Source: Ceratodon purpureus (taxonomy: Eukaryota; Streptophyta; Bryopsida; Pseudoditrichales; Ditrichaceae). Taken from it: 64,000 bases of DNA. Of this stretch, positions 1,588 through 24,513 are shown piece after piece. The translations under genes were made by a program, and so were the position numbers. The DNA lies in assembly GCA_014871385.1 (NCBI GenBank), contig CM026433.1, forward strand, positions 8,665,078 to 8,729,077, in the 5' to 3' direction. Position 1 is the first letter of the stretch, and each line of letters opens with the position of its first letter. The notes under the pieces were generated by a model that was not told the origin of the DNA, searched no databases, and saw nothing but the letters and a program-made list of their open reading frames with translations.

Positions 1588-1949
1588 CATTAGGAGAAAA
1601 ATCAGGTCACAAAAAGGCCGTGTAAGCGGCACGTGAGAGAAAAAAACGGGCGCTGCCCGCGTACTTTTTGACATGGCATGTGAAGTGCCACCGTGGTGCC
1701 AGCAACCGCCACGGGGGCTCGAACCAATGAGGACGTAGCTTGTACGTGAGCGGAGAGCGTAGAGCGGAGAGCGGTGAGCGCAGATTTGGAGAGCGGAGAG
1801 CACAGAGTGGGGGACAGAACCTAAAAATAGCACTTTTTTTACTAAAAATAAAATATAAAATTAGAAGATTCGAATATTCTCAGTATATTTTTGGAAAAAT
1901 ACTAATTTTAGTAATTTTATTGACCCTATAACCGTGGAATAATTACAGT
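1588..1949 (+). repeat. Left terminal inverted repeat of the 17.7-kb element
   Basis: It is a mosaic rather than a continuous repeat. The outer block (CATTAGGAGAAAAAT, then GGCCGTGTAAGC) matches the other end. A unique stretch follows, then a GC-rich block at about 1741-1803 built from GGAGAGC/GCGGAGAGC units (TACGTGAGCGGAGAGCGTAG and onward). The innermost shared block is GACCCTATAACCGTGG near 1922-1937. All three blocks recur in inverted order at 18880-19277, with different spacing between them. Confidence 0.85.
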
Positions 1950-2239
1950 GTTTTCATTGAATTTGTAGTTCGTTTTCTCTTTTTTTTGATGATTAATTTT
2001 TTAACGTGCACCAATTACTATGCTCCAGCTCCTTCTAACTAGTTTAGGCATACATTAATTCCCTTTATCTCCTCAAATTTATATGCAAATTACCGCATAA
2101 AATGTATTGGTATTAAAGCTCTTAAGAGGGATAAAGTAACAATTAATATCGTAACAATTTCTTAACATTGTTAGAAATCATCCGCCATGGTCTACATGGT
2201 TTATTTCTTTTATTCTTCATATTAACTTCCATTACTCTA

Positions 2240-2650
2240 TCTAACTTTCCTTTCCTTTAATTCTCTTTCATTTTCTTTTCTCTTTCATTTTATTCTCTCT
2301 TTCATTTTATTTTTTCTTTCATTTTATTTTCTAGTTCCTTTTATTTTCTCTTTCATTTTATTCTCCCTTTCATTTTTTTTTCTCTTTCATTTTATTTTCT
2401 CTTTCATTTTATTCTCTCTTTCATTTTCTTGTCTCCTTCATTATAATTTCTCTTTCATTTTATTTTCCTTTTCATTTTATTTTCTCTTTCATTTTATTTT
2501 GTCTTTCATTTTATTCTCTCTTTCATTTTATTGTCTCATTCATTTTATTTTCTCATTCATTTTATTTTCTCATTCATTTTATTTTCTCATTCATTTTATT
2601 TTGTCTTTCATTTTATTTTCTCTTTCATTTTCTTAGTCGCCTTCATATTA
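2240..2650. repeat. T-rich minisatellite, about 16-17-bp unit
   Basis: About 400 bases consist of imperfect tandem copies of a unit close to TCTTTCATTTTATTYTC. One strand is almost free of G. The long Phe/Ser/Ile/Leu-rich open frame at about 2531-2806 is a by-product of this repeat, not a gene. Confidence 0.9.
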
Positions 2651-2935
2651 TTTTCTACTTTAATATTTATTTTTGCTTTTTTTCCTTTTTGCTTTTATAA
2701 TTTATTTTTAATTTTTTTTATTATTTTTAAATTTGAAAAGCTAAATGACTTCTGCTCAACCCTCATCCTTTTCCATTCAGTTGAGGAAGATGCAACTTTC
2801 AAATGAATGAATAGCCGATTTTCAAGGGCGCCAAGCATCTCCTTCACGGATATTTAAGTTAGGATTATGGAATGTCTCTTCCTCTTTTCTGTTGGTGTTT
2901 TGTGAAGCTCTTTTCCGTACTGCGGGACAGCAGTT

Positions 2936-3388
2936 ATGGAAGACGTCAGAGATATTGTTGTTTCACTTGCTGACGATGTTTGTCCATTTCAACCATATGT
3001 TGAGGTGGAGGACGAAGAAGAGGTGATGGCCAGCAGCCAAGGGCGTCCTTTAACAACGGATGTTGACGTGCAACCGGATGTTAGAGCTGACCCTCCACGT
3101 TCAGAAAATTCGGATGATATCAGAGTGCTGGAGGAGGACGCAGATGTGCCTTTGCAACCTCATGCATACTCCAAGGTTGGAAAGATCCCAAGGGGAACCT
3201 ATTCCAGGGAATCAGTGAATCGGAGGCGGGGAGGTGGGCCATTGCTGAAACGATCATACCAAGGACACGCTCCAAGTGTGGGAACGAAAGTGAATGCGAA
3301 TGTAGTTTGTCTTGTAGTACAGTCAGAGGTTCGCAATCCTGCTGATAGTGTAGTGGGCAACCCTAAACGTGTTAGGGTCGAAGATTAG
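2936..3388 (+). CDS. Hypothetical acidic-to-basic protein, 150 aa, in the 17.7-kb element
   Basis: A single open frame starts with ATG at 2936 and stops at 3388. The N-terminal half is acidic (DVEDEEE-like stretch around residues 22-30, DDIRVLEEDAD around 60-70). The C-terminal half is basic (RRRGGG, KRSYQGH, ending KRVRVED), which could serve as a nuclear-localisation signal. No domain is recognised. It lies 250 bp from the 3' end of the convergently transcribed transposase gene and inside the terminal repeats, so it is probably cargo or an accessory protein. It could also be one exon of a longer gene. Confidence 0.45.
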   Translation: MEDVRDIVVSLADDVCPFQPYVEVEDEEEVMASSQGRPLTTDVDVQPDVRADPPRSENSDDIRVLEEDADVPLQPHAYSKVGKIPRGTYSRESVNRRRGGGPLLKRSYQGHAPSVGTKVNANVVCLVVQSEVRNPADSVVGNPKRVRVED

Positions 3389-3642
3389 GACATCTAATAA
3401 CAAGTATATGTTTGCTGTAATAAAGGGTACATGTCAGAGGATACGAGGTATATAGTGCACTTCTTCAAGATAGAATGTATTGAAATAGAATGCAATCAAT
3501 GTGAACGACAAAGCCTTTAATATAATGAAAAAGTCAATACAGCTTCTATATTGCTGACTTAGTACATGGGATATTACTAAAATCATTCACTACGTGACAA
3601 ATGGCCATTGTGGAAATGGCAGTTCTAAAGTAGGAGGGCTAC

Positions 3643-6600
3643 CTACTTCTTCGCCAAGGGGTGACGCAAGATTCCACTCTCTAGGAGAAGCCTGACCTCG
3701 TTGAAGCTAAAGGTAGGCGCATGGATGAAAAGCTCGGCTTCGGGATCACGGTTGCAGACCTTCAAGAGTATGTAGTAAAGGTGCTTACAATACGTGAACT
3801 GAGTCCTGCCTTTGAACGTAGTCATCGTCTTCTTGAATGCTGGGCAAGTGCAACCAGGGTAAGAACTGATGGTAATCTGGTAACGTGTGATGTGAGGAGC
3901 GACGCCCGAATCCAGCCCAATGATGCAACCGTGGCCCGGCTCAGGTATCATGGTGACGGAACGGAGGCGCGCTTTGAGAGACTCGGAGGAGCCCATGGAT
4001 AGTCGCTGCGCCGGATTGGGACGAGTGGCAGTGCGCTTCACCATCTTGCCGTCTCTCTTGCCTGGGTAGCGGTCAGCGTCTGCAGGGACTGGCACCGAGT
4101 TGAGATTCGCAGGGGGCGGGGCAGAGGAGAAGAGGCGTCTTGGGGAGACCGGCTTTTTAGGCGGAAGTTGAAAGCCTGCTGCTTCGAGGGCAAGAATCTC
4201 AGTCAGTTTTAGATTAGTACCTAGTTTCACTGGCCAGACCTCTGGAATGGAGGGGAATTCCTGGTCCTTTGAGTAGTGTGCTACCCACTTGCGCTTAGAG
4301 CCTTTCACGCAACGCTCGATATCGTCGGAGCAGAAGAAGAACTCAGTCTTCTCCACTAGGTTCCTGCGATAGTTAGTCCACAGCCCAGTGTAGGTCGGTG
4401 CAGCTGTGCAAAGGGGCCCCCTGACGATTCTCTCAGTGCACTTCTTCTTCGTTTCAGCTCTCTGGGCCCAGCAGCACTTCGCAGAAAGTTTGTGAAGTCT
4501 CGAAATGTGCCACTCCTTCACGTCCACCTTGGTTTCTTCAACCGCGTTGACATGGCGAATGCCGCCCTTGTTCACAGGTGAAGGTAAAGGGGAATCAACT
4601 TCCTGGGCAGGAGGTTGCGTACATTGTACCTCGGTGTCGTGTTCGGAGTCGTCTTCCACAATGACGGGCATCTGCATAGGGCGAGCCCTGACGGCACGTC
4701 TTGGGCCTCTTGGGCGTGAGAAGTTTGTCTTGTCCGGGCGATGAGACTCCTCGTCAGCTCCGATGGGGACGTCGGCTTTTCGCTTCTGTGAACCGAAGAC
4801 TTCCGCTCCAGGCATGATAGGCTGACGGGTGCAGAACTCATCCGCGCCTGGCATATCGAGCATGGGCTTATCGAGCAGTGTAGGATTTCCCCATTTCTTG
4901 GCGTTGCGTTCAGCCATCCGGAGTCTGAGTTCCTTCTTGGACGGTCCTGTTCCGCCGACGTCACCTTTGAGGAATTGGTAGTAGTTAACAACTTGAAGAA
5001 AAGCCCGAACGAAATCGTCCACGGTAGCAACGTAGAGGTCGTTCCCGTTGTTTCCAGAAGCCTGGAGCCACTTGTTGTGAACTGTTTCGGCGAGGTTACA
5101 GGTGGGCATCTCTGTGAGTTCTTCTTCCGTGAATTTCTGCAATTTTGACAGTAGGTGCCATTAGATTCACGGATTAGACTTTTGTAGGTTAGGGCTAGGA
5201 AACCAGTATGAAAAACATCAAAACAGAGTTCAGAGATAATACCTCGGTCATGAATCCCCCCCACTGGCGGAAGCGGTGGTGCCAGAATGACAGCCACTGA
5301 TCGAGTTTGATGAGCCCGCTTTCGCCAACGACCCCGGTGGATGCCCACCATGCTCGCAACGCGTGGTACAGAGTTTCCGCCTCTGCCATGCTGGTCGCAT
5401 TCTTGTACTGAGTGCACATCTTCTTGTGCTGTTCCCAGAGTTCTTCGGGGAAGTGCTTCTGCGTATACGCCACCATGTTCTGAGTCCAGTGGAACAAGCA
5501 CGACCTCTCCCGGTCCTCCATTGGGTCCTCTTTGTTGCCATTGCCGTAAAGGATTCGCACTGCATTCCAATTCGCCTGTGCGTTATCCGCCATGAACCCC
5601 TTGAAGTTCGGCGCTGCAACGCCATTGATCTCCATGACCAGGTTCAGGTTTTTCCAGAAGACGAGCTGGGCGTCCGTGTCCTCGGACTGCATGTCGCAAG
5701 TGGCGATTGTCATCACGCGGCAGTACGTGGCGTCGTACACATGGCACGCCATGGTCGACCAGTCTTTGACGCGTTTTACATGGTCGAACATGATCCATGC
5801 GTTCTCCAAGTCGCCACCAGCTTGCATTCGGCTGACCAAGTCGACACCACTTCCCGGCCCAACCTCCGACATCTTGAAGAGGAAGACTTTGTCACGCATC
5901 GATCCCTGACCAGGAAACCTATTCTCCTGGACATACGCCCAGAGACTGTTACCACGGAGCTTGGTGATACCGTCCATGATTCCGTACCTTTTGAATCTTT
6001 TGAAGGTGGCGACTTTGTTGCGGATGTTGGGCGACGCCATATCTTTGCATCGATCCAGAACAGGAACCAGCTCCTCCATCGTCAGCTTCCTCGGTGGTGC
6101 ATCCTCGGGCTGTAGAAGGTAGCTCCCGATGAGGAGTTTGCTCGCCTCCAGGACAACGGCGCTCTTTGTTGCTTTGTTGTTCATCTCTACCTGCTCTTCT
6201 ATTAAGCTACTAATTTCTGCTTTAGAGTCTCTGTAGTCTCCAACTTTCACTGGATGATGATGTGTTCCTATGTGAATACAAGCTCTAGTCTGATTTGGTT
6301 TGCCCACAACATAATAAATCTTAGCCTCGCATGTAGCTACACATGATGGAGGTTCTTTACATACCTTGCACACTAGCGTGGAGTCAGATGGAGGAGGCTG
6401 ATCCATGAGAAAAGCTTGCAGGGTACAGCCTTCGAACTCAGTCTCGTTAACCTCGAAGATCTTGGGAACACGCTTCAGGAAGTCACACTCATTGTTGCTG
6501 CACCGCAGCCATCCGACGCAGGTGGAACTTCGAAAAGAGAGTGCGAAGTCGTTTTTGATGTTTGTTGTGATGGTCTTGGTCCACAAGTGTCCGTCGTATC

Positions 6601-7408
6601 GTTTGTCCATTCCCTGCATTGACTTGGCGGCGAGCTTAGAGGATCCTGCAGCAGCTGGGGGCAACTCAAAAATAACCGGACCATCAAACTTCGCAGGCAA
6701 GTACTCTACTCTCTCGTGTCTAATAGTGGAATAGTCTATCTTCTTCAAAATGTTTTTGGACCCACGCGTCTTAGCAATCTCTTTAAGGAGCGGAACAATG
6801 CTAACTGTGACCTGGGACAATGGAGGAGACACATTGGAAGGAGGAGCATCTACGTGGACCTTAGGCACCAACTTGACGGGACTGACTTCGTCATCAGAAG
6901 AGAGAGATATGACGGTCGGAGGAGGTTTCTCTACATCTGAAGTCTCTGTACCAGGCTCGACTTTGACTTTGACATCACGAGGTAAGGGAGTCTGAATTGT
7001 GCAAGTAGAGGAGCGACGGGGGGTGAGGATCTCAGTGGATGCAGCCATCAGAGAATCAGTAAGACCATAGACTCTATAGGATCCAGGGAGGAGTCTCCAC
7101 TGCAACATGTTGTTCTCATCTCTCACTGAAGGTTGCCCGAGGGTGTGGGTAACCTCGGCAGTAACGTCATCAAAGATCTCCTCCTCTATACTGATGGAAT
7201 CTTCACGGAAATGGAATCTGAGACTGAGGCGAAGAGAGGACACCGTAGCTAGACCATCGTCATCTACGCGAAACCTAAGAGGGATGCCCATGCCTTGGGC
7301 GTACAGACAGACCATCCCCATATTCGCAGGAAACTCAGGCAAGAAGAGAGAAGTGTGACTGTACTGGCGAAGCAATATTGCAAGAGCAAAGTGAGAGGAA
7401 TGATGCAT
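3643..7408 (-). CDS. MULE-type transposase with GCM/WRKY-like and SWIM zinc fingers
   Basis: Two exons, 7408-5243 and 5136-3643, are joined by a short phase-0 GT-AG intron and give about 1219 aa. Residues 137-142 hold a sumoylation-like VKVEPG, and 156-164 a SUMO-interaction-like VISLSSDDE. A Cys/His cluster at about 287-375 (CSNNEC, VCKVCKEP, ACIHIGTHHHP) resembles WRKY/GCM1-type DNA-binding fingers placed before many MULE catalytic cores. The core shows D549 (VYDATYCRV), D598 (FMADNAQANWN) and C627-x2-H630. The CNLAETVH block at the start of exon 2 is a candidate for the third acidic residue. Near the C-terminus CTCPAF...TYCKHLYYIL is a SWIM finger. It would cut and rejoin the element ends. 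The coding frame is open throughout, so it may be functional. Confidence 0.85.
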
Positions 7409-7949
7409 CGCTGTTGATCATTATATTCAGGTCGGAATGTCCATGTGAACAGGTGGAGAATGATTCATTCTGTTACGTAACGAATGTACGATTTAAGAGG
7501 GACGGCTCTAACTATTTGGAATGTGACTTTTTGCTGGCCGAAGTATAGCAGGTAAGATATTAATAACTGTACTTTAATAATTTCAATCGTCGCGCAGATT
7601 CTAATAGTTATAAAGTTTGGTAAGATTGGATTGCGCCGTCTTTAAAATTATATATTTAAATCAGTGAATATAAAAAGGAGCATGCTTTCAAGTGCTTGAT
7701 TCTAATCTTTTAATTTAGAGTGTGCTTGGATTTCGACTATATATTTAAAGGTTAATATTTTAAACCACACTTAAGAATAGAACTATTATTAATATTCTTA
7801 AAATAAAGAGTGTATAAAATGTTTATACTGTTAAGATGCTATATGAACTTAGGGTTGTATCCAAATAGTTGTTCCTTATAGGTATTTAAGCGGGCAGGAA
7901 GTTCTTCAGAGAGTCTTTTTGTGAGAGAGTCAGTCCTTTGGTTAGACAC
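7409..7949. promoter_or_regulatory. Presumed divergent promoter region
   Basis: This 540-bp AT-rich gap separates the transposase start (minus) from the plus-strand ORF at 7950, so both promoters are likely here. A TATA-like ATATAAAAAGG lies near 7668-7678 and TATTTAAG near 7882-7889, shortly before the plus-strand start. No conserved regulatory motif is otherwise recognisable. The role is inferred from gene orientation. Confidence 0.4.
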
Positions 7950-8879
7950 ATGAAGCAGAGTGAAGGGCCATCTCCCTCCACTTATGTCACTCCTAAACCT
8001 AGACGAAAACGAGGTGTTACAGATTTTACGGATAGAAGAGCGAGGAAGAGGAGAGAGTCACGTAAGAAGGTAGAATTTCAACGTGACCATGTGAGTGCTC
8101 CTGTGAAAAGGAGAGGATCAGGTTTGCCTGTAGCTTTAAAGTTCTGTAGCATTCGTAAACTCATTCTAGACTCTATTGTGGAGGAGGAAGAAGAGTTTAC
8201 AGAGAATACTGTCGTCGGCAATCACGAGCAGGGACAGGAGATACTCGTAAGTGGAGTTCAAGGTGAGACCATGACGGAAGAATTAGTTTTTAATTGTAGT
8301 CAAAGAGTAGAGTCACCGCAACCGTCTATCAGATTTAATGACTCTTTGACGGGGGAGTCAAATTGTCAATCAGATCTTCGTTTCATCTCCGTCGAGGTTA
8401 GTATTACTAAACCGTCTTAAATGTTGGGAATTCTTTATATTAATTCAATAATTTAGCATGAACTCAATTTACTATCAACTTATTTAAAATAGGCAACTCC
8501 GTGAGGTCCCTTAATTATCACGCATTTTATTTTAATTGGTTTGGGTAGGGTATCGAAAGGATAAGGGAAGTCGATGTTCGAAGAAGGGCTCAGGAGGGGT
8601 GGAACATCGAGCAGCTGCAACTCATTGCGAGGACAGCCAGGAGTGGAATTCTGAGTGCAGGGGAAGGAGGGGAGGCAATGGCAGCAAGGTTAGAGCAGAT
8701 GAGGGGCGGAGAGGAGGAGCAAGGCGACGCAGGGGCGGCGGGGCAGGCGCTTGTCGAGATGGAGGCGGACGTGGGCGGAGGTGGACAGGACCAGCCCGAC
8801 CTGGTTGGGGATGCGAGTGAGGATATGGAGAGGACGGACGGGGACGATGGAGAGGAAGACCCAGAAGATGCAGACCAGG
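7950..8879 (+). CDS. Two predicted 5' exons of a charged nuclear-type protein, possibly the start of the ParB-methyltransferase gene
   Basis: Exon A runs from ATG 7950 to 8396 (GAG|GTTAGT, 149 codons). Exon B runs from 8550 (TTTGGGTAG|GG) to 8879 (GACCAG|GTACGG, 110 codons). Both are phase 0 and join in frame. Exon A is strongly basic near its N-terminus (PKPRRKRG, RRARKRRESRKK: NLS-like), then acidic. Exon B is rich in Gly/Glu/Asp and ends EDPEDADQ. No domain is recognised. Exon B ends in a splice donor rather than a stop. The next good plus-strand coding sequence is the exon near 12664, also phase 0, so a single gene with an intron of about 3.8 kb is plausible. If unspliced, exon A alone ends at 8420. 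Confidence 0.5.
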
Positions 8880-10030
8880 TACGGAATCTTTAGCTTCAGA
8901 AATTGAGAGTACGTGTTTCAATGATGAGCTATTTGAATGGGGTGTTGTACGGATCTTGGGGTGTAGTCAACAGTACGGCATAGAATATTTCGGGAAATGA
9001 GTTGGGTTCGTACGATTTGGGGAAATGGGTTCTGATAAGTTGGGTTGCGGTCTTTTGGTTTGTCGGTCGTGGGTTTGTGGAAAGTGGTTTGCGGGTTGTA
9101 ACTTGTGGATTGGGTTTGGGTTGATTGCATTTTTGGCTTTGGATTTCGCTCCTTCGAAGCTGCTGTGGGCTGCGTGGATTGACTGTTCGCTTGCTCTTGG
9201 GATTGGGAGGCACTGCCTTCGGCTGGACCTCGGAGATGATTTCTTTTAGGACTTGAGTGTGTCGTGGTCGAAATCCTGTGCGGACCATTTTAATTGAACT
9301 TGTGCGGAATCGCGAATGCCCGGATCGAGTCACTTGTGCTAATATTCAACTTTGACCCTCGTGTATTTTGACTCTCGTGTTTGAGCTTACTGACTACTTA
9401 TCTCTCGGCCACACAGTTGTAAACTATTGCACACTAGGCTCTCCTCGTTCTCGTCTCATGACTTTCTTTGCCAGCGTCGTCGTCGTCGTCGTGCCCGGGA
9501 TTTGTTCGTGTTCTTGTAAGGTTTGGTTGCAGTTTTCATCTGCTGGGTGCTGGCTTCATGGATGGACGAGCGAGGGTTTGGTATTGAGCTCTGTCGCGAA
9601 TCGTGCATTGTAGCTGCGATGAGGTTGCTGAGGTGATACCCGGTGAATTGTTCAGTGGTTCATGTGCGCTGACCTGAGCTGTTGTGCGGATTTTGAAGTC
9701 GTCGTGGCAATATGTTTCGGTATTTCTGGGAGGGTATGTGGGAGTCTGTTTGGGGCATGCGTTGCTTGTGTCGTACACGCGGGGGCATTCGTCAATCACG
9801 AGTGGATGGAATGGAAATTGTGAGCTGTGAGCGTGGGTGCTGGTTGCCCCTCTCTGGACGTCGGTCACTTCGGGGTTTGGTTTGGATACTGCCTTGGCTG
9901 TTCAGGGATGCATCCGAGTTTTCTCGATATGTTTTTGGATTTACACCTTTGTTAACCTCGTTGTCCATCTGGATGTCCACCTGGTAGGAAATATTCGTAT
10001 TTGAAGTTAATTTTGATTTTTTTAATTTTT
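8880..10030. other. GT-rich spacer without recognisable genes
   Basis: Between the donor at 8880 and the palindrome array, the plus strand is G/T-rich with many near-repeats of TTGGGTT/GTGGGTTTG type (about 9000-9130). Short open frames occur on both strands, but none has a recognisable domain or consistent splice context. It may be part of a large intron. Confidence 0.5.
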
Positions 10031-10046
10031 TTAAAAATACCCCAGA

Positions 10047-11993
10047 CCTACTGTCGTCGACGACAGTAGGCCGAGGGAGGGGTTCGGAGTTTGGGGATTT
10101 CTTTTTAGTTTTTTTTTTTAAATTTTTTTGGGTGATACTTTGTGTGATAAAATCGCATAATTGCTTAGAGAGAATTTATAGTAATGCGAAGCTTTTCAAA
10201 TTGTATACGTATTTGAATTAAATTATATTTTTTTTATTTTTTTGGGAAAACCCCAGACCTACTGTCGTCAACGACAGTAGGCCGAGGGAGGGGTACGGAG
10301 TGTGGGGATTTCTTTTTAGTTTTTTTTTTTAAATTTTTTTGGTGTTATTTTGTGTTTTTTTGTGTCATAAGAATGCATAATTGCTAGGAAATAATTAATA
10401 GGAATGTGAAGGTTTTGAAGTTCTATTCGTATTTGAAGTTAATTTTAATATTTTAAATTTTTTTAAAAATACCCCAGACCTACTGTCGTCAACGACAGTA
10501 GGCCGAGGGAGGGGTTCGGAGTTTGGGGATTTCTTTTTAGTTTTTTTTTTTAAATTTTTTTCGGTGATACTTTGTGTGATAAAATCGCATAATTGCTTAG
10601 AGAGAATTTATAGTAATGCTAAGCTTTTCATATTGTATACGTATTTGAATTAAATTTTGATTTTTTTAATTTTTTTTAAAATACCCCAGACCTACTGTCG
10701 TCAACGACAGTAGGCCGAGGGAGGGGTTCGGAGTTTGGGGATTTCTTTTTAGTTTTTTTTTTTAAATTTTTTTCGGTGATACTTTGTGTGATAAAATCGC
10801 ATAATTGCTTAGAGAGAATTTATAGTAATGCTAAGCTTTTCATATTGTATACGTATTTGAATTAAATTTTGATTTTTTTAATTTTTTTTAAAATACCCCA
10901 GACCTACTGTCGTCAACGACAGTAGGCCGAGGGAGGGGTTCGGGGTTTGGGGATTTCTTTTTAGTTTTTTTTTTTAAATTTTTTTGGGTGTTACTTTGTG
11001 TGATAAAATCGCATAATTGCTTAGAGATAATTTATAGTAATGCGAAGCTTTTCAAATTGTATACGTATTTGAATTAAATTTTATTTTTTTTAATTTTTTG
11101 GGAAAACCCCAGACCTACTGTCGTCAACGACAGTAGGCCGAGGGAAGGGTTCGGAGTTTGGGGATTTCTTTTAATTTTTTATTTTTAATTTTTTTGGGTG
11201 TTACTTTGTGTTAATTACAATGTATATTAAACATTATTAAATTTTTAGAGGTTTTTTTTTTTATTTTTAAAGAAATTTTAAGTCCACGAACCTACTGTCG
11301 TCAACGACAGTAGGCCGGGAGGGTATGGAAGGATTTGGGGATTTTATCGATTTAATTTTTATTTTCTTTATTCTTTGATTTTTGGTGTTATAAGAATTGC
11401 ATTTTGCTCCCAAAATCTGAATATTCTTTACATTGTTTTCAATTTTCAATGGTTTTATTATAATTTTTAATAGGAATGTGAAGCTTTTGAAGTTTTTTAC
11501 ACATTTGAATGATAATTTCAGTTTTTTAAATTTTTTGAAAAATTCTAGACCTACTGTCGTCAACGACAGTAGGCCAAGGGAGGGGCAAGGAGTTTGGGGA
11601 TTTTTGAATCGTTTTTTTTTTTAAATTTTTGGAGTTCTTTTGTGTAATAAAATAGCATGAAAGCTTAGAGAAAATTTATAGGAAATTAAAAGTTTTCAAG
11701 TTGTATATTTAGTTGAATGTTATTATTTTTTTTTTAAAATATTTTCAAAATGCCCAGACCTACTGTCGTCAACGACAGTAGGCCGAGGGAGGGGCATGGA
11801 GTTTGGGGATTTTTGAAGTTTTTTTTTTTTTAATTTTTTTAGAGTTATTTTGTGTGATAAAATAGCATGAAACCTAAGAGAAAATTAATAGGGAATTAAA
11901 GCTTTTCAACATGTTTACTCATTTGAATGATATTATTTTATTTTTTAAATTTTTTTGAAGAACCCCAGACCTACTGTCGTCAACGACAGTAGG
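10047..11993. repeat. Array of ten 24-bp palindromes at about 211-bp spacing
   Basis: Each site has 10-bp arms CCTACTGTCG / CGACAGTAGG around a TCAA centre; the first has TCGA, making it a perfect palindrome. Sites are at 10047-10070, 10258-10281, 10479-10502, 10691-10714, 10903-10926, 11114-11137, 11291-11314, 11550-11573, 11759-11782 and 11970-11993. Each is followed by GGCC..GGGAGGG and a poly-T tract, and the AT-rich DNA between sites is also repeated. Start-to-start spacing is 211, 221, 212, 212, 211, 177, 259, 209 and 211 bp. A half site (CCTACTGTCGTCAAGC) lies at about 12377-12392. As RNA each site would form a 10-bp hairpin with a four-base loop; as DNA it is a binding-site-like dyad. 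Confidence 0.95.
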
Positions 11994-12663
11994 CCGAGGG
12001 AGGGGCATGGAGTTTGGGGATTATTGAAGTCTTTTTTTTTTTAATTTTTTTGAAGTCAATTTCTGTGACTATAAAATCGCTTCACTCGCCCGGTGATTTG
12101 AATCAGGAATTAAGCCAATATAAATTGATTAACTGATGTAATGGACAGTGATAATCAGTAGCTACTTACATATTGACCGAGTGATTTTATTTTATTTTAA
12201 ACCGGTTGATATTTCAAGATTTTGGTTTCGGGAGGCCGGGAGGGTGGGGAAGGATTCGGGGATTTTTGCAATTTCTTTTTAGTTTTTTTTATTCTTTGAT
12301 TTTTTGTGGTCTGTGAACTGGATTTTGGTCAGAAAATCTGAATGTTATTTATAATGTTTTTTTAATATTAGGCAATCCTACTGTCGTCAAGCATGGTTGG
12401 GAAAATACTTCTATTTAAATTGTAAAACATTTTTGGATTTCTTTGAAATATTTGGATATGGGGATTATGCTTCTGTAATTATTTTTATTTTTTTGAGTTC
12501 CTTTTTGTGTAAAGTCAATGCATGGTTGATAAAATAGTTTTAATTGAATGGTAAGAGTCTTGATGAGTGTTGATGAGTTCTTAAGGTTTTTTTTGGAGCG
12601 TTCTCGAAGTTGTGGTTTGTTTCATTATAGTTGCTGTTTTTTCTAATAATTAAAAAATTGTTT
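11994..12663. other. Degenerate end of the palindrome array
   Basis: This AT-rich DNA resembles the array spacers, with a truncated repeat flank at about 12227-12300 (GGGAGGCCGGGAGGGTGGGG) and a half palindrome at 12377-12392. No gene is visible. The 3' end, with TTTTTTCTAATAATT before ATGATTAAG, could be an intron end feeding the exon at 12664-12732. Confidence 0.5.
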
Positions 12664-15600
12664 ATGATTAAGGACTCTGATGGAGATCATCTGGGTAGCG
12701 AGCGTCAAGACCCGACTCCAGCAGAAACTGAGGTATTTCATTCAATTTTCAATTTATATTGTTTTCTTATGTTTTTGATTTTGAGTTCTATTCGCCTCAA
12801 ACACATGTTCGTTTCCTTCTTTTTAAAAAATTGAAGTTAATCCTCACTTCATTTCTTCTACTCTAGGTATCATCCGATGCTCCTGAGATTGCTACTTCCC
12901 CCATTTCTGTGATCAATGTTTCCGATCTCTCGGATTCATTTGATCAGCCTTATTGTACCTGTGATGTAGCCAACCCTGTAGGTGTGGAAAGTGGACCTCT
13001 CGAGGTCCACTCTCCTCAGTACATGCCTACCTCGCCAGTGTACATGCCTACCTCTCCAGTGTACATGCCTACATCCCCGGTGTATGAGCCTACCTCCCCG
13101 GGCTACATGCCCACGTCTCCTCCACAGGGCTCCCCGCCGATGTCTCCTCCCTCTCCTTCGTCGCCGATTAGAGTCAGGAGGCCAGCCCATGTCGTCTTTG
13201 CTCTGCCGGCAATTCTGCCGTGCCCTGTCCAACAGACCAGGCGATTTTGGAGGAGGCGCCGTCACTGGAACTGTAGACAGTCTAAGGAGTACTATAGTCG
13301 ATCCTCACGTAGATAGTTTTATCAATCACAGTTGATGATTGATTTGTTAAAAGAGAGGTTACAGTATGAAGATATATTGTTACTTTCTTTTACATAATTG
13401 TCTACTTTGCATGACTTTCTTCTATTGTGCTTGTATTCCTAATTTGCTTACCTTCTCGCAGGTTACGCAAACACAAGATGTGTTGGCTAAACCATCTTGT
13501 CCGTTAAACTTGAAGACTGCAACAGAAGGGGAATTGGAACATCAGACCTTATACAAGGTGAACACCAACGCCGTCATCAACAAGCTCAGGATCAAGCCAT
13601 CGCAAAAGTCCCGAATGTCGGTGCCCCTTTGCAGGATGATCCCAATGGCAAAGGTCAGACCAGTGGGCGAAGTGGGTGTGCAGCATTTGGAGCGGGAGTT
13701 CGTCAAGGGGTATAGAGATGGCGACCGCGTCATGTACATCTCCATGTACAACAACGAAGAGCAGACACGAGATGTTACGGATGAGGTCATGGCTAAATGG
13801 AGCCCATTATGGAGGGACGCGAATGATGCCTTTGAATTTGAGCTTCAAAGTGACGAGGACTGGTCTCATTTCTCGGGGAAGATGTTCTTTGTCTGGGAAG
13901 GTAACCATCGCCTCTCAGCATGGCTTCGGCATATCAACAAGCATCATGCAGAGGACCCGTCATGGCACATATCAGTGAACTGCATAGTACTCGATCCCCG
14001 TGGCCATGTTGGCAATCTTCTTCACGCAATGCATGACATCAACTGGTAAGTACTTGTTTCTTTTCTCGTGTTATTCATTTGTTACTTAATCTCATCTCTT
14101 TTATTCATCATACGTATTTTGGTTTCTTTTCAGGTCGACTGAGAATGACCACGTCAAGAGTAATCTCCCTGCAAAACTATTTCGAATCCGCTCTTTTGGA
14201 ATGATGAAGCTTGAGGAATTCAAAGACCTCCTAAGTCCTGAAGAGTATGACGCATGTTTGAAGAACAAGCCACCTAATCCATCGTGGTTTCCCTTGACAA
14301 CTAAAGTTTTCATCGCATTTCTCTACCGAGTAAGTCCTACCTCCTCTCTCTATTTGCTTTTTATTCTTCAATACTCATGGAATTTCCTAAGCCTGAATTA
14401 TCTATCTACAGCGGGAACTTGCTGCGGCCTCCGATGAAGCAGCAAATGCCTACCGCATGAAGACACCCGTGGAAGAGCAGTCTGCAAGTGCAGTTTGGGA
14501 TGTCATGAATGAGGCATCAGAGAGAATGGTCGAAGCCATCAAGAAGAAGGACTTTACCAAGTACTTGGCCATTGCGAATCCCAAGAATGGTGACGACTTC
14601 CTCAATGAGGTGACTCACTTATCATTGTTCAATTCACTATTTCGTATTACTTCATTAATTTCTGTATTTATATTTTTTAAACTTCCGTGCTTCTTGCAGA
14701 TTAATCGCCATTTCAGTCTCAACAATAAGCCTGAGATGTCAGTCGATAAGCTTCAGAAGGTTGTTCCAGCGGCCGTTGAGGCCAAATACAAGGCTCGTTG
14801 GTTGAAGTGGTGGAACTCATCCCCGACTGCTCGAACGTCTTACAGATTTCTGCCATCTGAATTCAAAGACACCGAATTCGACCCATGGTTGAACAAAGCT
14901 TCATTCTGGGCTGGGGTAATTTTCATTAAAAATTTCTTTCGAATTCCTTGTTCCTTTATTTTTTTACTGTATTCCTTCTTCGCTGCTACTAATATGAATT
15001 CTGTATTACAGTTGGAGGAAGCCGTCATCCACGAAGTCGAGGACATATTCAAGTCTGAGAACCTCGATATCAATTGGATGGCATTTCCTGATGTCCAACA
15101 GCCGGGCGATTTTGTCGAAAGTTCACGTATTCTCTTGTGGGATAAGGCCTTCCCTACGTTCATAGGAAAAAAAGCTGTGAAGCACTTCGACAAGAAGTCC
15201 AACTTCGCTAAATTCCCTGGAACCGCTCAAGTTGTCAAGCGGGTTATTTACCGGTACATTACCAAACTTAATCGCATTTCCATTTCATAGTTCTCATTGT
15301 AATTGTTTCTTATACTTACCTCCTTTGTGTCTTACCATAGGTACTTCAAGCGAGAGCTTCTTTTGAAGGGGGCCATCAGCGTTCAGCAACTCCCCATGTA
15401 CTTCAAGCTTTGGACGCAGACAACCTCGGACCAGTGTATCTATTCTCCCCAGCAGATAAAAAGGTACAAAGCTGCTCACCTTGACGCTGGATGCTGGTAT
15501 CTTGATTGTATTGGTGGTTTCACCATTGACTCCGAGGCGGAAGTCAAGATGCTGCACGATGGAGGTGCAGTTGTCGTGGAGGACTCCGTGGATGATGCAG

Positions 15601-17415
15601 AACGTCCTGAAGGAGAGCAGGATCAGTCTTCTGCTCCTCCACCGAAGAGAGGGAGAGGAAGGCGACTAAAATCTCTGGGTTCTCGGTCAGAGGCATCACA
15701 GCAAACTGGTGCGGAGTCTTCCGCGCCAACTGAGAAGGCACCAGAGCCCTCTCCGGGTATTGTCGTTACGAACCCTTCTCCAGCTTCTTCACCGGCTCCT
15801 TCCTCGATCAGTGCTTCGGAGATCACCAGAGGTCTCCTTCAGCAGAGGAAGGCCAAACTATATCCTCAAACAACTTCTTCCGCTGGAGCTTCGATTTCCA
15901 CACATGTCTCCGTCTTCAACTCATCTGTGGATTCCATGTTACGGCGAAATAGGAGACAGGAGAGAAAAGGTGGCGACCCGGATTGGATCAAGACTCAAGA
16001 CTTCATTCGCAAGGTTTGTTCCTATATTTTGACATTTACTGGATTCTGCCACCTTTACTCGCTAAGCAGTTACTAACTCTGCTTTCTTGTTTCCTCAAGT
16101 TTGGAGCAGGCCGCGAAAACATAGTTGGGGACCGTTGCAAACAAGAGGACCATCTGGGAGTCGACTTGATCATTGCCGACATCCCTGAGAATCTTCCCGT
16201 CCCATCCGTTTCCGTTCCCCCCACGAGTATTCCGCCTTGGAACTCTCGCTACAAGGATTATTTGTACGACATCTTCCATTTTGCAGATGATTTCCTGCAG
16301 AAAGATGGTGCCATCTGCCTCATCTACAACACTGATCAGAAGCTGGCTGAGGATATCGAGGTAGAAGCTGCTGGTGGTGGATACGTGCTGTTCAAGGACT
16401 GGTGGGGTGTCAATGTACTCGGCCTGACTTCTCCTACGAACCCCGAGAACTTGGTACTTTTCCTGAACATGCCCTTCTCTTTGCTTACTGATAACCCTTC
16501 CGCTTCATTTTTCTCACTAGTTTTGCTTGACTGCAGACTATGCGGTTCTGGATTCGCGTCTACGTTCGTAGTGGCAGTACTTTCTCCTTCCAGACGAAGA
16601 AGGAAGACCTGATACATGGGCTCCTCAACATTACCGAGAGTGATGCCATTTTCAACTTCACCGATGCCGACTCTCAGCTCATGAATGGGGAGGTGCCGTG
16701 GAGAGGCCCAAGGGAGAAATCCCCTGAGATGATGCAGAACATCATTGAGGAGCTGTCGAAGCCCGGCGACATAGTCTTTGACTGGAATGCTGGGACAGGT
16801 AACTCTCTTACATATATCTGCTTCATTTTTCCTCTCGTTTTTTCCAAAGTTTCTCATTTCTTTGTTTCTCTTCGAGTTTCAGGGGCCTCCATCAAGGCCG
16901 CCCAGGCTGTTGGTCGTCACATTCTCGCTTTTGAGGAGGACGAAGCCATATTCAACGCCCTTCTCAAACCACCCGCCATGGGCCCTCCTAAACATCCAAG
17001 GCCGGCAGCAACAGGCGAAGCGCCTCCAAAGAGAGCAAGACCTGACAAGTGGTGTAAGTCTTCTATTCTTTGTTTATATTATCCAATTATTACTGCTCTT
17101 TCTAGCTCTACGGACTCTGTCTAACCACAGTCGGTTCTCTATTGCAGAGTAGTTTCCGCAACACCGCCACGTGGGCCAAGAGCAGTGTCCACTCCATCGT
17201 GGCGTCTTCATTCCAGCCCGATTCAGCCTTTCATACTTCCGGACTACGCAGAGGACTTAGCACAGGCGTTTCAATCTGGAGCCCTAACATATGTTCCTAG
17301 TCGGCCAACTACTTTTGATCCCAGGGCCCTTCTATTCGTCGATGACGAGGCGGTAGAAGGAGATTCAGAGTCATCTAGTTCTGAGAGTGGAAGTAGCGAT
17401 GGTAGCATATTCTGA
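12664..17415 (+). CDS. ParB-like / DNA N4-N6 methyltransferase protein with Pol II CTD-like heptads
   Basis: Predicted exons are 12664-12732, 12867-about 13300 (3' end uncertain), 13462-14045, 14134-14329, 14412-14609, 14700-14915, 15012-15253, 15341-16013, 16100-16453, 16537-16798, 16883-about 17048 and 17148-17415. Exons from 13462 to 16798 join in frame. In order the protein has five YxPTSPx heptads, then a ParB/sulfiredoxin-like domain ([19 protein letters not shown], then [11 protein letters not shown] with the GxHR motif). A Trp-rich middle and a Ser/Pro-rich linker follow. The beta-class methyltransferase domain comes last, with [10 protein letters not shown] at the DPPY position preceding SAM-binding motif I ([14 protein letters not shown]...[10 protein letters not shown]). 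The C-terminus is acidic/Ser-rich. ParB-methylase fusions are known in bacteria and phages. DIPE departs from the canonical catalytic motif, so activity is uncertain. Exon 2 otherwise ends at a stop at 13316, and the last donor is weak. Confidence 0.75.
13020..13124 (+). repeat. Five tandem CTD-like heptad codons
   Basis: Five consecutive 21-bp units encode Y-M-P-T-S-P-V (three times), Y-E-P-T-S-P-G and Y-M-P-T-S-P-P. Relative to the RNA polymerase II CTD consensus YSPTSPS they keep Y1, P3, T4, S5 and P6 and lose S2 and S7. Only this reading frame is open across exon 12867 onward, and it is in phase with the previous predicted exon, which supports it as coding. Confidence 0.9.
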
Positions 17416-17868
17416 GTTTGAAGGAGGCTTCGGTCTTTCATTGTTTTCATTGGATTTGATTTGATTTGATTTAATTGGAGTTCATTGCGTAATCCTTTGC
17501 CTACTCTACTACCCTGAATCTATACTTGTTACGATTCTCATTTCCAAATCGTCTCCTCCTATGTAGAGGATGAAATGTCACAACCATAATGCTCAGAATA
17601 TAATATGAAGAATGAAATGTTACAAAAGAAATGTTCAACATTTAAATTGCGCTGTAACTTATATTTTAACCATTCAAAATCCCACATTTATTAACCATAT
17701 TACCTATTATTGACTTGGTTCACATCTTGGTTTCTGCTACTCCATTATTCTACACGAACTCTGAAATAGTCCACGAACTTTTAAGACCATCTCTTTTAGT
17801 TGGTTTCGAGTTCTCTTATTCCTAAATCTTAAGGATTGTATTCGAACACCCCGCTATACTTCACAGTA
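17416..17868. other. Convergent intergenic gap
   Basis: AT-rich 3' flank between the methyltransferase gene (plus) and the 123-aa ORF (minus). It contains a short TTTGATTTGATTTGATTTAAT repeat near 17454-17474 and AATAT-rich stretches that could carry polyadenylation signals for both genes. Nothing else is seen. Confidence 0.5.
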
Positions 17869-18240
17869 CTAATCCTTCGGAGGATATACAGTCCAACTCT
17901 TGTCCATATCAAACCAGCAAGTTTCGCCATCCGATATGATCACTTCGGGCAGTTGAACAACTGGATTCTCATCGACGTTCGATAGCAAGGGATACGGGAT
18001 TAGGGACAACTCCATAATACGTAGAAGCTCATTGGTACAAAGCACTGTCCAACGCCATTCACCTTCACCAACATGGAGGCTTCCGATGTGCCTAAACGGT
18101 GGCAGGTCCATGCCTCGTTCCCTGGCGCGCTCCACCTCCAGCAGCCACGGCCGCAGCTCCTCATAACTCGCCGGTGCCTTTGGGGGCAAACCTACAGCCG
18201 CTCTCGTCCTCTTGGATCTCGCATTACACACCTTCGGCAT
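17869..18240 (-). CDS. Hypothetical protein, 123 aa, in the 17.7-kb element
   Basis: The open frame runs from ATG at 18240 to a stop at 17869. The N-terminus is basic (MPKVCNARSKRTRAAVGLPP), followed by a charged segment with EVERARERGMDLPPF and a Trp/aromatic-rich C-terminus (GEWRWTVLCT, CWFDMDKSWTVYPP). No family is recognised. It is the last ORF before the right terminal repeat and is convergent with the methyltransferase gene. An upstream exon in 18250-18500 is possible, but I could not identify one. Confidence 0.45.
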   Translation of the reverse strand: MPKVCNARSKRTRAAVGLPPKAPASYEELRPWLLEVERARERGMDLPPFRHIGSLHVGEGEWRWTVLCTNELLRIMELSLIPYPLLSNVDENPVVQLPEVIISDGETCWFDMDKSWTVYPPKD

Positions 18241-18879
18241 CGCGCAACACAGTGAATTCTTGTAGTCTTCAAACGTTACACTCTAGCTTGCAGATTGACA
18301 TCCCCGAACTCCTACGCTACCTTCGCATACAGCACAGAATGCCAAGGTCTGTGTCACTATCCTAATACACCTCCTAGAGACAAGCTCAAGAAACCAAGAG
18401 TGACCTCCTTCTCTGGAACCCAGCTTACCAAGTGCTGTTTCATGATGAAAATCTCCTACTTGTATCACTCAAATGAAGATGCTTTGCTGCCTAGGAAGAG
18501 AGAGTAATCTTCGATGAAGACAAGGACTCTGACAAGGTATATCTTGGTTCCAGCAGTTAAGATAATATACACGACATTTGAAATATTCCAGGAAGTTTTC
18601 AAACCTTGCCTCCTTTACGTTCTGTCAAATTTGTTTTTTCCCTTGTGAATTTACATAATCCTATGAAGGAATTATTTGTTTCATCTAAAACTCAACGCCT
18701 GATCATTGTATCTTACCTAAACCCATGACAAATCTAAAGGAATGTATGCATGACGTCAGCATGACATCAGCCCTAATTTGTATCTTTGAGAATAAACGTA
18801 ATAAATTCTTACCAGAGATAACCCTAATTTCCACGGTAATATACTCTTTTTCTAAAAAAAGTGTCACAATTAAGCCTTA
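18241..18879. other. Spacer before the right terminal repeat
   Basis: Only short open frames in conflicting phases are found, without recognisable domains. The stretch becomes AT-rich after about 18590. No repeat other than the terminal-repeat blocks starting at about 18880 is apparent. Confidence 0.4.
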
Positions 18880-19277
18880 ATTTAGTAATTTTCCACGGTT
18901 ATAGGGTCTACTTTGCTTTTGAAAATTTTCGTAATTGTCAATTCTGTGCTCTCCATTCTGCGCTCACCGCTCTCCGCTCTACGCTCTCCGCTCACGTACG
19001 AACTTTCCCCGAACCAATGACCTCCGAGCGAGGCGTGTGGAGGGCACATCTACAGTGTCGGGCTGACACAACCTGCCCACTTGGGACCAAAGCCCGAGCC
19101 GAGGCATTCATGTCTCACCTAATATTCCGAGGACCTTTGTTGTGAGTGCGCCACGCAGTTCTGTGCGGGCAACAACTCTGGCATCCGCTGCCAGCGGCAG
19201 AGGTGCCCAAAGTAGGGAGTTCACCTAGAAAGGGCAGGCTTACACGGCCTTATTTTGAGCTCATTTTTCTCCTAATG
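18880..19277 (-). repeat. Right terminal inverted repeat of the 17.7-kb element
   Basis: Read inward on the minus strand from 19277 it starts CATTAGGAGAAAAATGAG and continues with GGCCGTGTAAGC. After about 200 bp of unrelated sequence come the GC-rich GGAGAGC block (about 18946-19000) and CCACGGTTATAGGGTC at 18892-18907, the inverse of the left end's innermost block. The ATTGGTTCGGGG next to the GC block is itself in opposite orientation to the left end's CTCGAACCAATG, another sign of mosaic rearrangement. Confidence 0.85.
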
Positions 19278-19906: not shown

Positions 19907-22900
19907 TCACTCGGATAACTCCGCAAGGGTTTTCATCCCGGCGGCAGAAATGAGTTTCCGGTGCTGAGGGGCTGGTAGTGCCTTTGTAAGCACATCAGCG
20001 ATGTTTTTGGCGGAGGCTACCTTCCTAATCTCAATCTGTCCTGAGTCGGTAAGCTCTTGTGTGTAACCGAATATATGCGGGTTGATATGTTTCACCCGAT
20101 CGGACTTGATGAAACCTCGATGAGACTTGCTCGATGCATGCGGCGTTGTCTTCGAAAATGACCGTCGGCTTGGGGTTTGTGGAAAAACCAGCCATTGTGA
20201 AGATGGCTTCCTGCATGGTCCGGAGCCATACAGACTCCCGAGCTACCTCATAGAATGCAAGTAACTCCGCATGGTTCGTGGAGGTGGCGGTTGTTGTTTG
20301 CTTGGTGGAGCGCCACGAGATTGGGGCGCCGTTTTTGATAAAGATCCACCCGGTCTGAGACTTGCCGGATGCTGGATCAGTCTTGAAACCTGAATCTGCG
20401 TAGCCAATTATTTCGCCGGGGCCGCGAGTGAAGTGAAGTCCCAGATCTTCTGTCCCACGGTGGTAGCGCATCAAATGCTTGACGCCTTGCCAATGTCTTG
20501 CGGATGGGCGTTGGCTGTGCCTCGCTAAAACGCTGACGGCGAAACTAATGTCCGGCCGTGTGTTGGTTGCTAGATACAGCAAAGCTCCCACGGCTGCTAA
20601 GTATTGCCGTTTCTCTATCTCCTCCTCCTCGGGTTCGCTGGGGCGATATGGGTCTTCTTCGGTCTTGGACTTGCCGATCATAGGGGCAGAGAGGGCGTTG
20701 GCGGTTTCCATGTTGAATGTGCGTAGCAGCTTGCGAGTGTAAGTCTGTTGGTGAAGTAGCAAGCTTCCATCTGCAAAATGCTTGATTTGCAGTCCAAGGC
20801 AAAACGAGGTTCGGCCTAACAGTTTCATCTCAAACTGTTTGGTTAGGATAAGCTCTACTTCTTTGGTTAGGTGCGGAGTTCCTATGGAATTCAAATCGTC
20901 CACATAAACTGCCAATATCACAAATTCCTTGTCGGATTTCAAGACAAAGATGCATGGTAGGGCGGGGTGGGTGGTGAACCCATGGGCGATCAAGTATGAC
21001 TTGAGATGGTGGTACCAAGCGCGCCCGGCTTGTTTCAAGCCATATAATGCTTTGCATATCTTAAGTCCCGAAAATTTTCCAGGTTGGGTGGGAGGGAGCT
21101 GGGGTAAGAATCCCGGGGGAGGTTTGATATGGAGTTCTGTATCTAAGTCTCCGTAAAGGTAGGCAGTCACCACGTCTAGCAGCCTTGTTTCTAGCGACAG
21201 CTGAACTGCTAGGCTTAGCAAGTAGCGAAACGAGGTGCTGTCCATCACGGGGGAGTATGTTTGCTCAAAGTCAATCCCGGGTTTCTGAGTGTAGCCTTGG
21301 GCTACCAATCTAACTTTGTACCTAAGGATATTTCCGTGCTCATCTCGCTTGCGAGTGAAAATGAGCTTGTGGCCTATGGACTGGGTTTGGAGATTTGTAA
21401 CAAGGGGGCCAAACACGGCTCTCTTGCGAAGGGAGTCATACTCGGCCTTAATGGCCGCTTTCCATTGGGGCCAATCAGTCCTGCTTTTGGCCTGATCTAG
21501 GGTCGAGGGTTCGGGCTCTAAGCTGGTGAGCCTGGTTACAAAGGTCTCGTGATCATCCCAAGGAATGTCACTTGGTGGTTCAGGTGCCTGGTGATTGACA
21601 TGGAGTGACGCTCGGGTGCGAGGATTGGTGGTCTTGCGGCGCTTTTGAGGTGGCGCTGCGGGTACTAGGTTGCCTGCACCCGGGAGTGGGCTGCGGACTA
21701 TGCGCGGGCCGGTTTGGAAACCGTTCGGGACCTTGTCTGCTAAGTCTGCTAAGGCAAGAAGTTTGCGGACTTCTATGTCCGGGAGTGCTGTGCGAGGGTC
21801 CGGGTTCATAGTCAGGGTCTCCTGATCTTTGAAGTTAAGTGGTTTGCTGCTCCTGGACTGGAATCTAGGCATTGCGCCGGGAAAGCTAGTCTCTATGAAC
21901 TTGCAGTTCTGGAATCTAGCTTTGAGAATGTCATCCTTGTTTGGGAGCTTGTACCTAATGATGCTAGGGGAATCAAAACCAAGGTAGATCCCTTTGATTC
22001 TATGGGGTTCCATGGTTTTCATTTTAGGTTCAGGTGTTGGGACCCAAACTTCCCAGCCAAAGGTTCTTAGGTGGGAAACTATAGGTGTGCGCCCGGAGGC
22101 AATTTCTAGGGGTGTTTGCGTTTGGAGCAAGGTTGGGCGCAGCCTAAGTAAGACTGCAGCATGCAAAACTGCATGCCCCCAATATGTTGCAGGGAGTTGG
22201 GCATGGAAAAGGAGGGGGCGGACTATGAGCTGGATCTTTTTGATAAATGCCTCAGCTAGGCCGTTTTGGGAGTGCTCATATGCAACTGAGTAGGAGAGTT
22301 CTATGCCTGTGGCTGTGCAAAAGTCCTCAAAAGCATGTGACTTGAATTCTCCTGCGTTATCTAGTCTAAGGTGGCGGACTGGATACTCAGGGTAGTGGTT
22401 GCGAAACTTGAGCAACATGGCTAAGGTCTTGGGAAACACCATATTCCGGGTGGTTAGGAGTGACACTTCAACGTGACAACCGGAAGCATTGACAAGTACG
22501 AAGAAGTACTGAAACTGACCTGAAGCAGATGTGATGGGGCCGCACCAATCTCCATGCAATCGGAAGAGAGGTGGGGGCATTTCACCCGGGAGTTTCCAGC
22601 GTGAAGGTTGGCGGATGAGCTTGCCTTCCATGCAGGTTGCGCATTCTTTGACATGCTCCGCGTCGCTAGAGCACATGTCGTGCCCACCCAGCAGCGGGAT
22701 CATGCGCCGCATCATGGTTGTGCCTGGATGACCTAGTCGCTTGTGCCAAAGGTCGGGCCGGTGATGGGCAGCGAGGAAGGAAGCTTGGCCAGTCCCGAAG
22801 GGAAGGTGGTGACTCGCGCTGGGGCGGCCAGTGACCTCTTCCGCACCCAAAGTGGTGGGGGTAACGCCGCGGATGCTGAGCAAGTAGAGCCCATTTGCAC

Positions 22901-24284: not shown

Positions 24285-24513
24285 GGCGATCACTGCTGGC
24301 CTACTAATTGTGCTAAGTTGGCTGCCCTATGGAATGGCTCGCTCTCTCTCTCATCAAAGTCACACTTCTCACTGTGAAGCTACTTGCTATTTTGATCGAG
24401 GGGAGGAGGGCGGGGGGAGGGAGGGTGGGGGAAAAATAAAAATCAGTAAAGACAAAACATCCCCTAAAAACAAAGCATCCTCCTAAGACGAAAACACATG
24501 GGCGGTAAAGACA

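What the first reader, a model, noticed from the sequence alone, without database searches (positions are those of the whole stretch)
1588..19277. 17.7-kb transposon whose cargo is a ParB-methyltransferase, a palindrome array and unknown ORFs
Sequence shows matched inverted ends, exact boundaries inside a broken copia gene, an open transposase frame and a second large multi-exon gene with DNA-recognition and DNA-modification domains. Plant DNA transposons rarely carry their own DNA methyltransferase. An element-encoded modification system could protect it from silencing, mark its ends or regulate transposition; those roles are inferred.
Basis: partly seen in the sequence, partly recalled or inferred. 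Interest (0 to 1): 0.92.

Follow-up and report, generated by a model that had tools for sequence, protein, structure and literature searches.

The report
Moss jumping gene with ParB self-recognition
A large, repeatedly copied jumping gene in a moss-like genome carries, besides its transposase, a protein built from a bacterial DNA-clamp (ParB) fold and a DNA-methyltransferase fold, next to an array of palindromes whose sequence changes with the ParB type, which suggests that the element may mark itself as 'self' with a lock-and-key system.

The parts
1588..1730 (.). Left part of the outer 400-bp CATTAGGAG MITE (target of the element, not part of it)
   Evidence: 4 of 4 fetched copies are exactly 400 bp and read through
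1721..1730 (.). Target-site duplication GAACCAATGA, left copy
   Evidence: single in the 4 fetched empty MITEs
1731..1784 (+). Left terminal inverted repeat GGACGTAGCTTGTACGTGAGCGGAGAGCG..., with GAGCGGA-type repeats at 1748-1801
   Evidence: first 29 bases 221 times exact in the genome, control 0
3643..5136 (-). Transposase exon 2: NLAETVHNKW (third acidic residue by motif) and CxC...CxH SWIM-like finger (motifs recalled)
   Evidence: 97.8-99.8% aa identity in 10 of 10 other copies
5137..5242 (-). Transposase intron (GT-AG in the window)
   Evidence: donor pattern in 11 of 11 copies, exact acceptor string in 8 of 11
5243..7408 (-). Transposase exon 1: ubiquitin-like N-terminal part, WRKY/GCM-like zinc domain, RNase H-like core with D559 and D608 (start codon assumed at 7408)
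9964..12065 (.). Tandem array, mostly about 212-bp units, with the palindrome CCTACTGTCGTNNACGACAGTAGG (10 exact: 10047, 10258, 10479, 10691, 10903, 11114, 11291, 11550, 11759, 11970)
   Evidence: 1,802 exact palindromes in the genome, control 0
12867..13316 (+). Exon with RNA-polymerase-II-CTD-like heptads; its joint to the ParB exon is unresolved
   Evidence: mean dN/dS 0.11
13462..14045 (+). ParB-like exon E1 (CTPase fold, GNHR motif)
14134..16013 (+). Linker exons E2-E6 (14134-14329, 14412-14609, 14700-14915, 15012-15253, 15341-16013)
   Evidence: open, AG/GT at every edge that could be checked
16100..17415 (+). Methyltransferase-fold exons E7-E10 (16100-16453, 16537-16798, 16883-17048, 17148 to the stop); motif IV ADIPEN at 16175, motif I DWNAGTG at 16780
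   Evidence: PF01555 E 1.6e-9, 38.4 bits, cutoff 26.7; positions
18948..19010 (-). Right terminal inverted repeat ...GTACGAACTTTCCCC
   Evidence: last 29 bases 285 times exact in the genome, control 0
19011..19020 (.). Target-site duplication GAACCAATGA, right copy
19021..19277 (.). Right part of the outer 400-bp MITE

Best explanation
Window 1731-19010 is an autonomous Mutator-like transposon (MULE). Shown: its ends and 10-bp duplications, an IS256/Mutator-type transposase, and a conserved second gene whose product combines a ParB-CTPase-like domain with a methyltransferase fold. Shown: a tandem array beside that gene whose palindrome is kept far better than the spacers and differs between ParB clades, while the transposase hardly varies. 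Inferred: the palindromes are parS-like loading sites for the element's own ParB-methyltransferase protein, which binds as a dimer, may slide as a nucleotide-dependent clamp, and so singles out copies of its own family. Inferred, less sure: the methyltransferase fold is a SAM-binding or effector part that has lost or changed base methylation, and the purpose is to keep self copies out of silencing (VANC-like) or to help their transposition.
For: Ends: 10-bp duplications in 6 of 6 copies with both ends read, empty site in 4 of 4. Copies: 221 left and 285 right exact ends, controls 0; 28 of 52 exact left ends on C1-C4 face a right end within 40 kb (median 17.7 kb), 4 pairs in three wrong arrangements. 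Linkage of the second gene: 47 of 76 exact motif-IV sites on C1-C4 lie 1.4-2.9 kb before a right end, 0.14 expected, 3 wrong arrangements within 4 kb. Coding: 0 stops in 94 exon hits, window included; 137 of the best 150 ParB exons (1,901 candidates) without a stop, my count. Selection: ParB exon dN/dS 0.12 at mean dS 0.97; transposase 0.17 at 0.08 and 0.10 at 0.05. Fold. Arrays: 11 of 11 long copies, 8 of 8 further stretches. Palindrome 88-100% identical among clade A and C2 arrays, spacers 44-67% (one pair 81%), shuffled 47-50%. TCGN4CGA in 14 of 19 units, 0.27 expected; CTGTCN6GACAG in 11 of 12 clade A+B units and 0 of 6 C+D; TTCGGN2CCGAA in 4 of 5 clade D units and 0 of 13 A-C. L040 and C11_889 differ from their clade in both arms (sequences; my reading).
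Confidence: 0.6

Rival explanations
1. The protein is an active 4mC/6mA DNA methyltransferase, guided by its ParB domain, that chemically marks the transposon (first reader; the Ectocarpus authors suggest the like for their protein).
For: PF01555 match above cutoff; weak similarity to CcrM and DpnA (E 0.0037 and 0.01); exons open in the copies read; Ectocarpus passage.
Against: Motif IV, aligned to DPPYN of DpnA, reads DIPEN in 9 of 9 copies, the diverged C6 copy included; loss of the aromatic residue is expected, from general knowledge, to hinder base methylation; dN/dS of E7-9 (0.29) is above that of the ParB exon (0.12).
Confidence: 0.2
2. The palindrome array is a cis element for the transposase (enhancer or synapsis site) and the ParB-methyltransferase has nothing to do with it.
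For: It lies inside the element, next to the transposase gene.
Against: Palindrome types differ by ParB clade, while the transposase is 96-99.8% identical over the 11 long copies; the termini carry their own GAGCGGA-type repeats as candidate transposase sites.
Confidence: 0.09
3. A partition- or tether-like role: the ParB protein on arrays clusters copies or holds them to chromosomes, as bacterial ParB does for plasmids.
For: ParB fold and palindromes.
Against: The element is chromosomal; none of the 10 ORFs scanned matched a ParA-like Pfam family (not all ORFs were scanned).
Confidence: 0.08
4. Chance capture of a host or bacterial gene as passive cargo.
For: Mutator elements are known for gene capture (general knowledge).
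Against: Hundreds of motif sites, purifying selection at dS about 1, fixed place before the right end; relatives of both genes in other assemblies, with two contig lengths in common.
Confidence: 0.02

Closest known systems
ParB-methyltransferase accessory genes of algal transposons (Sola1-1_Ec32 of Ectocarpus, 21.5 kb; green and red algal cases cited there)
   Same: One protein (1,104 aa there, 1,052 aa or more here) with ParB-like and N4/N6 methyltransferase domains, on the strand opposite the transposase, in a giant DNA transposon (PMC12477816, passages).
   Different: There a Sola1 element of a brown alga, here a MULE in a moss-like genome; the word palindrom does not occur in that main text; their catalytic motif was not seen, here it is altered.
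VANDAL elements and VANC proteins (Arabidopsis)
   Same: MULE with an accessory gene; short target motifs in tandem repeats of non-coding element DNA that change together with the protein (PMC5735166, passages).
   Different: VANDALs are described as non-TIR MULEs (PMC13317346, one passage); the VANC passages I saw mention neither ParB nor methyltransferase nor palindromes; here TIRs, palindromes and a ParB fold; anti-silencing not shown here.
Bacterial ParB-parS, KorB, Noc
   Same: ParB-CTPase fold; palindromic sites near the gene (parS recalled).
   Different: No ParA, HTH or dimer domain identified; eukaryotic chromosomal element; identity to solved ParB/Noc/KorB structures 3-14%.
Phage ParB-N6N4-methyltransferase fusions
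   Same: Same domain pairing, reported as enriched in phages (PMC12704722, passages).
   Different: Eukaryotic multi-exon gene on a transposon; the words transpos, plant and moss do not occur in that main text.
MULE / IS256 transposases
   Same: RNase H core nearest ISCth4, WRKY/GCM-like zinc domain, 10-bp duplications.
   Different: No significant Pfam Mutator or MULE hit.

Membership tests
Mutator-like element (MULE) | 8-11 bp target-site duplication | tested here: met
   10 bp in 6 of 6 copies with both ends read; range per PMC6446971, passage
Mutator-like element (MULE) | Terminal inverted repeats (present in TIR-MULEs) | tested here: met
Mutator-like element (MULE) | IS256/Mutator-type DDE transposase | tested here: met
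   [not shown]
Mutator-like element (MULE) | Match to Pfam Mutator, MULE or SWIM models | tested here: inconclusive
   No significant hit; Transposase_mut best E 0.034 in 2 of 50 members
ParB-CTPase fold | Fold | tested here: met
   [not shown]
ParB-CTPase fold | Pfam ParB model | tested here: inconclusive
   Not hit; one of 87 members hits CB_ParB_C at E 0.089
ParB-CTPase fold | CTP binding and hydrolysis | not testable with these tools
   G147 N148 H149 R150 A153 nearly invariant in 87 sequences
ParB-parS system | Palindromic sites specific to the protein, near its gene | tested here: inconclusive
   Palindromes and clade association seen; binding untested, linkage not excluded
N6_N4 DNA methyltransferase (PF01555) | Profile match above curated cutoff | tested here: met
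   38.4 bits against 26.7
N6_N4 DNA methyltransferase (PF01555) | Catalytic (D/N/S)PP(Y/F/W), motif recalled | tested here: not met
   DIPE in 9 of 9 copies
Transposon ParB-methyltransferase accessory class | Both domains in one transposon-encoded protein, opposite strand to transposase | tested here: met
   class described in PMC12477816
Transposon ParB-methyltransferase accessory class | Sequence homology to the algal proteins | not tested
   Algal sequences were not fetched
VANDAL/VANC | Homology of the accessory protein to VANC | not tested
   No VANC sequence fetched
VANDAL/VANC | Lack of terminal inverted repeats | tested here: not met
   TIRs present

The most novel reading that the evidence does not exclude
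A eukaryotic transposon family runs a ParB-parS-type self/non-self code: exchangeable modules, each a ParB half plus its matching palindrome array, are swapped among elements that share transposase and methyltransferase half, and a methyltransferase fold that has lost base methylation serves as effector on a ParB clamp to defeat silencing of self copies only.
Probability: 0.35. Interest if true: 0.93.

Novelty: new variant of a known kind. Interest (0 to 1): 0.82.

Why it matters
How a transposon tells its own copies from the rest of the genome is known in detail for few systems, such as VANC in Arabidopsis (general knowledge). Here one genome holds hundreds of copies with at least four ParB types among 18 read, and array types that go with them, so specificity can be read from sequence and tested directly by swapping arrays and ParB domains. 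It would also be a eukaryotic use of the ParB clamp fold on palindromic DNA, and a case where a methyltransferase fold is kept by selection with an altered catalytic motif.

Tried and rejected
Rejected: 1588-19277 as one element. Rejected: passive cargo. Led nowhere: the whole 1,052-aa protein as query, 7,989 candidates scored, none at E <= 0.001; I suppose because the collection mostly holds unspliced ORFs, and exon-sized queries did find relatives. Pfam, NCBIfam and PHROGs on the ParB exon gave nothing useful. tblastn of the methyltransferase against phages gave weak hits only (best listed E 2e-4). The joint between heptad exon and ParB exon could not be solved (no phase-0 donor found by eye), so the heptad exon may be a separate small gene; no heptad occurs in the 120 listed ParB relatives. 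Positive selection on the variable half was considered and rejected: dS is raised with dN, so exchange between old lineages fits better. Pfam hits above E 0.01 on the transposase and ParB sets were ignored, and one below it that matches 2 of 87 members (DUF5531, E 0.0096). The E3-5 averages include a weak C12_465 hit that I judge spurious. C12_465 was not read as far as the second gene, and C7_4640, C6_1067 and C4_1705 not to its end, so exons missing there prove nothing. In some searches one unit per copy was used (two for C3_2386); minor second arrays of C13_748 and C4_1705 were left out, and one search lacks L039-L046 and the clade C and D copies.
Full report
1. Where. The window is C13:8665078-8729077 of an assembly of 362.5 Mb in 151 contigs; C6 is 110.5 Mb long. 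These sizes fit the moss Ceratodon purpureus with its large sex chromosome; that is recall and inference, no call names the organism.

2. The ends. The CATTAGGAG repeats at 1588 and 19277 are real. A genome search with 1588-2200 scored 40 of 2,808 candidates; the 39 other than the window start matching at query position 134-144. Searching 1588-1730 alone finds another repeat family (40 scored of 1,335 candidates). Four of those copies were fetched: 4 of 4 are exactly 400 bp with the same ends and no insert; taking 1731-19010 and one duplication out of the window also leaves 400 bp. So the outer unit is a MITE and its copies are the empty-site control. The inner element starts GGACGTAGCTTG and ends CTTTCCCC. 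Both ends were read in 6 of the 11 copies held (window included), and 6 of 6 have a perfect 10-bp duplication: GAACCAATGA, CGCGCGCGTG, GGCGCGCGAT, CATTATCTGC, GTGGTGATTG, CTGAACCAGC; sizes about 16.5-18.9 kb.

3. Copies. The first 29 bases occur 221 times exactly and the last 29 bases 285 times, reversed controls 0. On C1-C4, 28 of 52 left ends face a right end within 40 kb (median 17.7 kb), against 4 pairs in three wrong arrangements together. The motif-IV DNA of the methyltransferase occurs 631 times with up to 3 mismatches, control 0. Of the 76 exact sites on C1-C4, 47 have an exact right end 1.4-2.9 kb downstream in the right orientation (0.14 expected; 3 wrong arrangements within 4 kb); 29 have none within 4 kb, and I did not look why.

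6. Mosaic evolution. Mean dS between copies is 0.08 and 0.05 in the two transposase exons, 0.63 in the heptad exon, 0.97 in the ParB exon, 0.72 in E2, 0.98 in E3-5, 0.33 in E6, 0.20 in E7-9 and 0.10 in E10, with dN/dS 0.17, 0.10, 0.11, 0.12, 0.10, 0.20, 0.34, 0.29 and 0.47 over 55, 55, 45, 45, 45, 55, 36, 36 and 21 pairs. The E3-5 figures include one weak C12_465 hit. One pair runs against purifying selection in E7-9: C13_748 and window, dN 0.027, dS 0.012. Ends, transposase and methyltransferase end are thus young and homogeneous (the C6 copy apart), the ParB part is old and constrained. Eight further copies chosen for a window-identical motif IV have ParB exons 71-95% identical to the window's. 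Exchange of a middle module between elements would give this.

7. The array. All 11 long copies have a tandem array downstream of the transposase's 5' end; in 10 the second gene follows, in C12_465 it was not reached. Units are 129, 171, 201, 210-213 or 242 bp, up to 39 units. Eight of eight further stretches have one as well, units 108-215 bp. Among clade A and C2_1929 arrays the palindrome is 88-100% identical, while spacers are 44-67% (window and second C3 array 81%), shuffled 47-50%. Within clade A spacers (53-67%) still stand above shuffles, so they are related but much diverged; C2_1929 against the rest is at or near the shuffle level. C11_889's palindrome is 71-79% identical to the rest, its spacer at the shuffle level. 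ParB exons fall by identity into clades A (8), B (4), C (1) and D (5). Clade A: CCTACTGTCGTNNACGACAGTAGG in 7 of 8; the eighth, L040, has TACATTCGTGCACGAATGTA, changed at two inner places of both arms. Clade B: CTGTCN6GACAG in 4 of 4; C11_889 changed outside it in both arms. Clade D: TTCGGN2CCGAA in 4 of 5; the 18-bp sites are 67-94% identical and spacers lie within about 0.05 of the shuffled mean in 9 of 10 pairs (L042/L041 0.71 against 0.55). The core TCGN4CGA is in 14 of 19 units, 0.27 expected. Fisher tests of clade against motif give 0.0004 and 0.0016 but ignore shared descent and linkage, so they are descriptive. Against the reading: C7_1121 and C12_465 have only weaker inverted repeats, C6_1067's alone is not above shuffles, L043 is imperfect and its ParB exon has a stop. 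Genome-wide the clade A palindrome occurs 1,802 times, control 0; the five arrays first listed, all on C1, each lie within about 22 kb of an exact right end.

8. Mechanism. Palindrome type follows ParB clade, while the transposase of the same 11 copies is 96-99.8% identical to the window's; so the ParB protein is the likeliest reader of the palindromes. Change in both arms fits a dimer. A ParB-type clamp could then spread over the element. What it does there is open. VANC proteins bind short motifs in tandem repeats of their own MULE family and lower silencing, and protein and motifs change together (PMC5735166, passages); I take that as the best model, not as a result. Active methylation is the main rival.

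9. Known or new. Ectocarpus Sola1-1_Ec32 carries a 1,104-aa ParB-methyltransferase gene on the strand opposite the transposase; its authors cite similar green and red algal cases and propose that such proteins bind and modify their own transposon (PMC12477816, passages). The class is therefore known. I did not find, in ten searches of which I saw listings, such a gene on a MULE, in a moss, or with co-varying arrays. Word counts in a paper on Mutator elements and a review of gene capture give 0 for ParB and methyltransferase (PMC6446971; PMC13317346). Most subscription papers are not held; the book chapter and the Bostrychia paper cited by the Ectocarpus authors were not seen.

Noticed in passing
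   Followed up: partly
13020-13124: Five RNA-polymerase-II-CTD-like heptads (YMPTSPV type) in the window; heptads, in varying number, in 10 of 10 copies where the exon was read; dN/dS 0.11: possible mimicry of the polymerase tail.
   Followed up: partly
2261-2673: A 17-bp tandem repeat of about 24 copies near the left end of the element; its length in other copies was not measured.
   Followed up: no
20031-24293: An open 1,420-aa copia-type reading frame (RVT_2 E 2.3e-49) next to the element.
   Followed up: no
[not shown]
   Followed up: no
C4_1705 copy, C4:17028900-17051250 (L021, L022, L034): Its array is split by a GC-rich block with 44-bp and 275-bp repeats and other palindromes, perhaps another insertion.
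   Followed up: no
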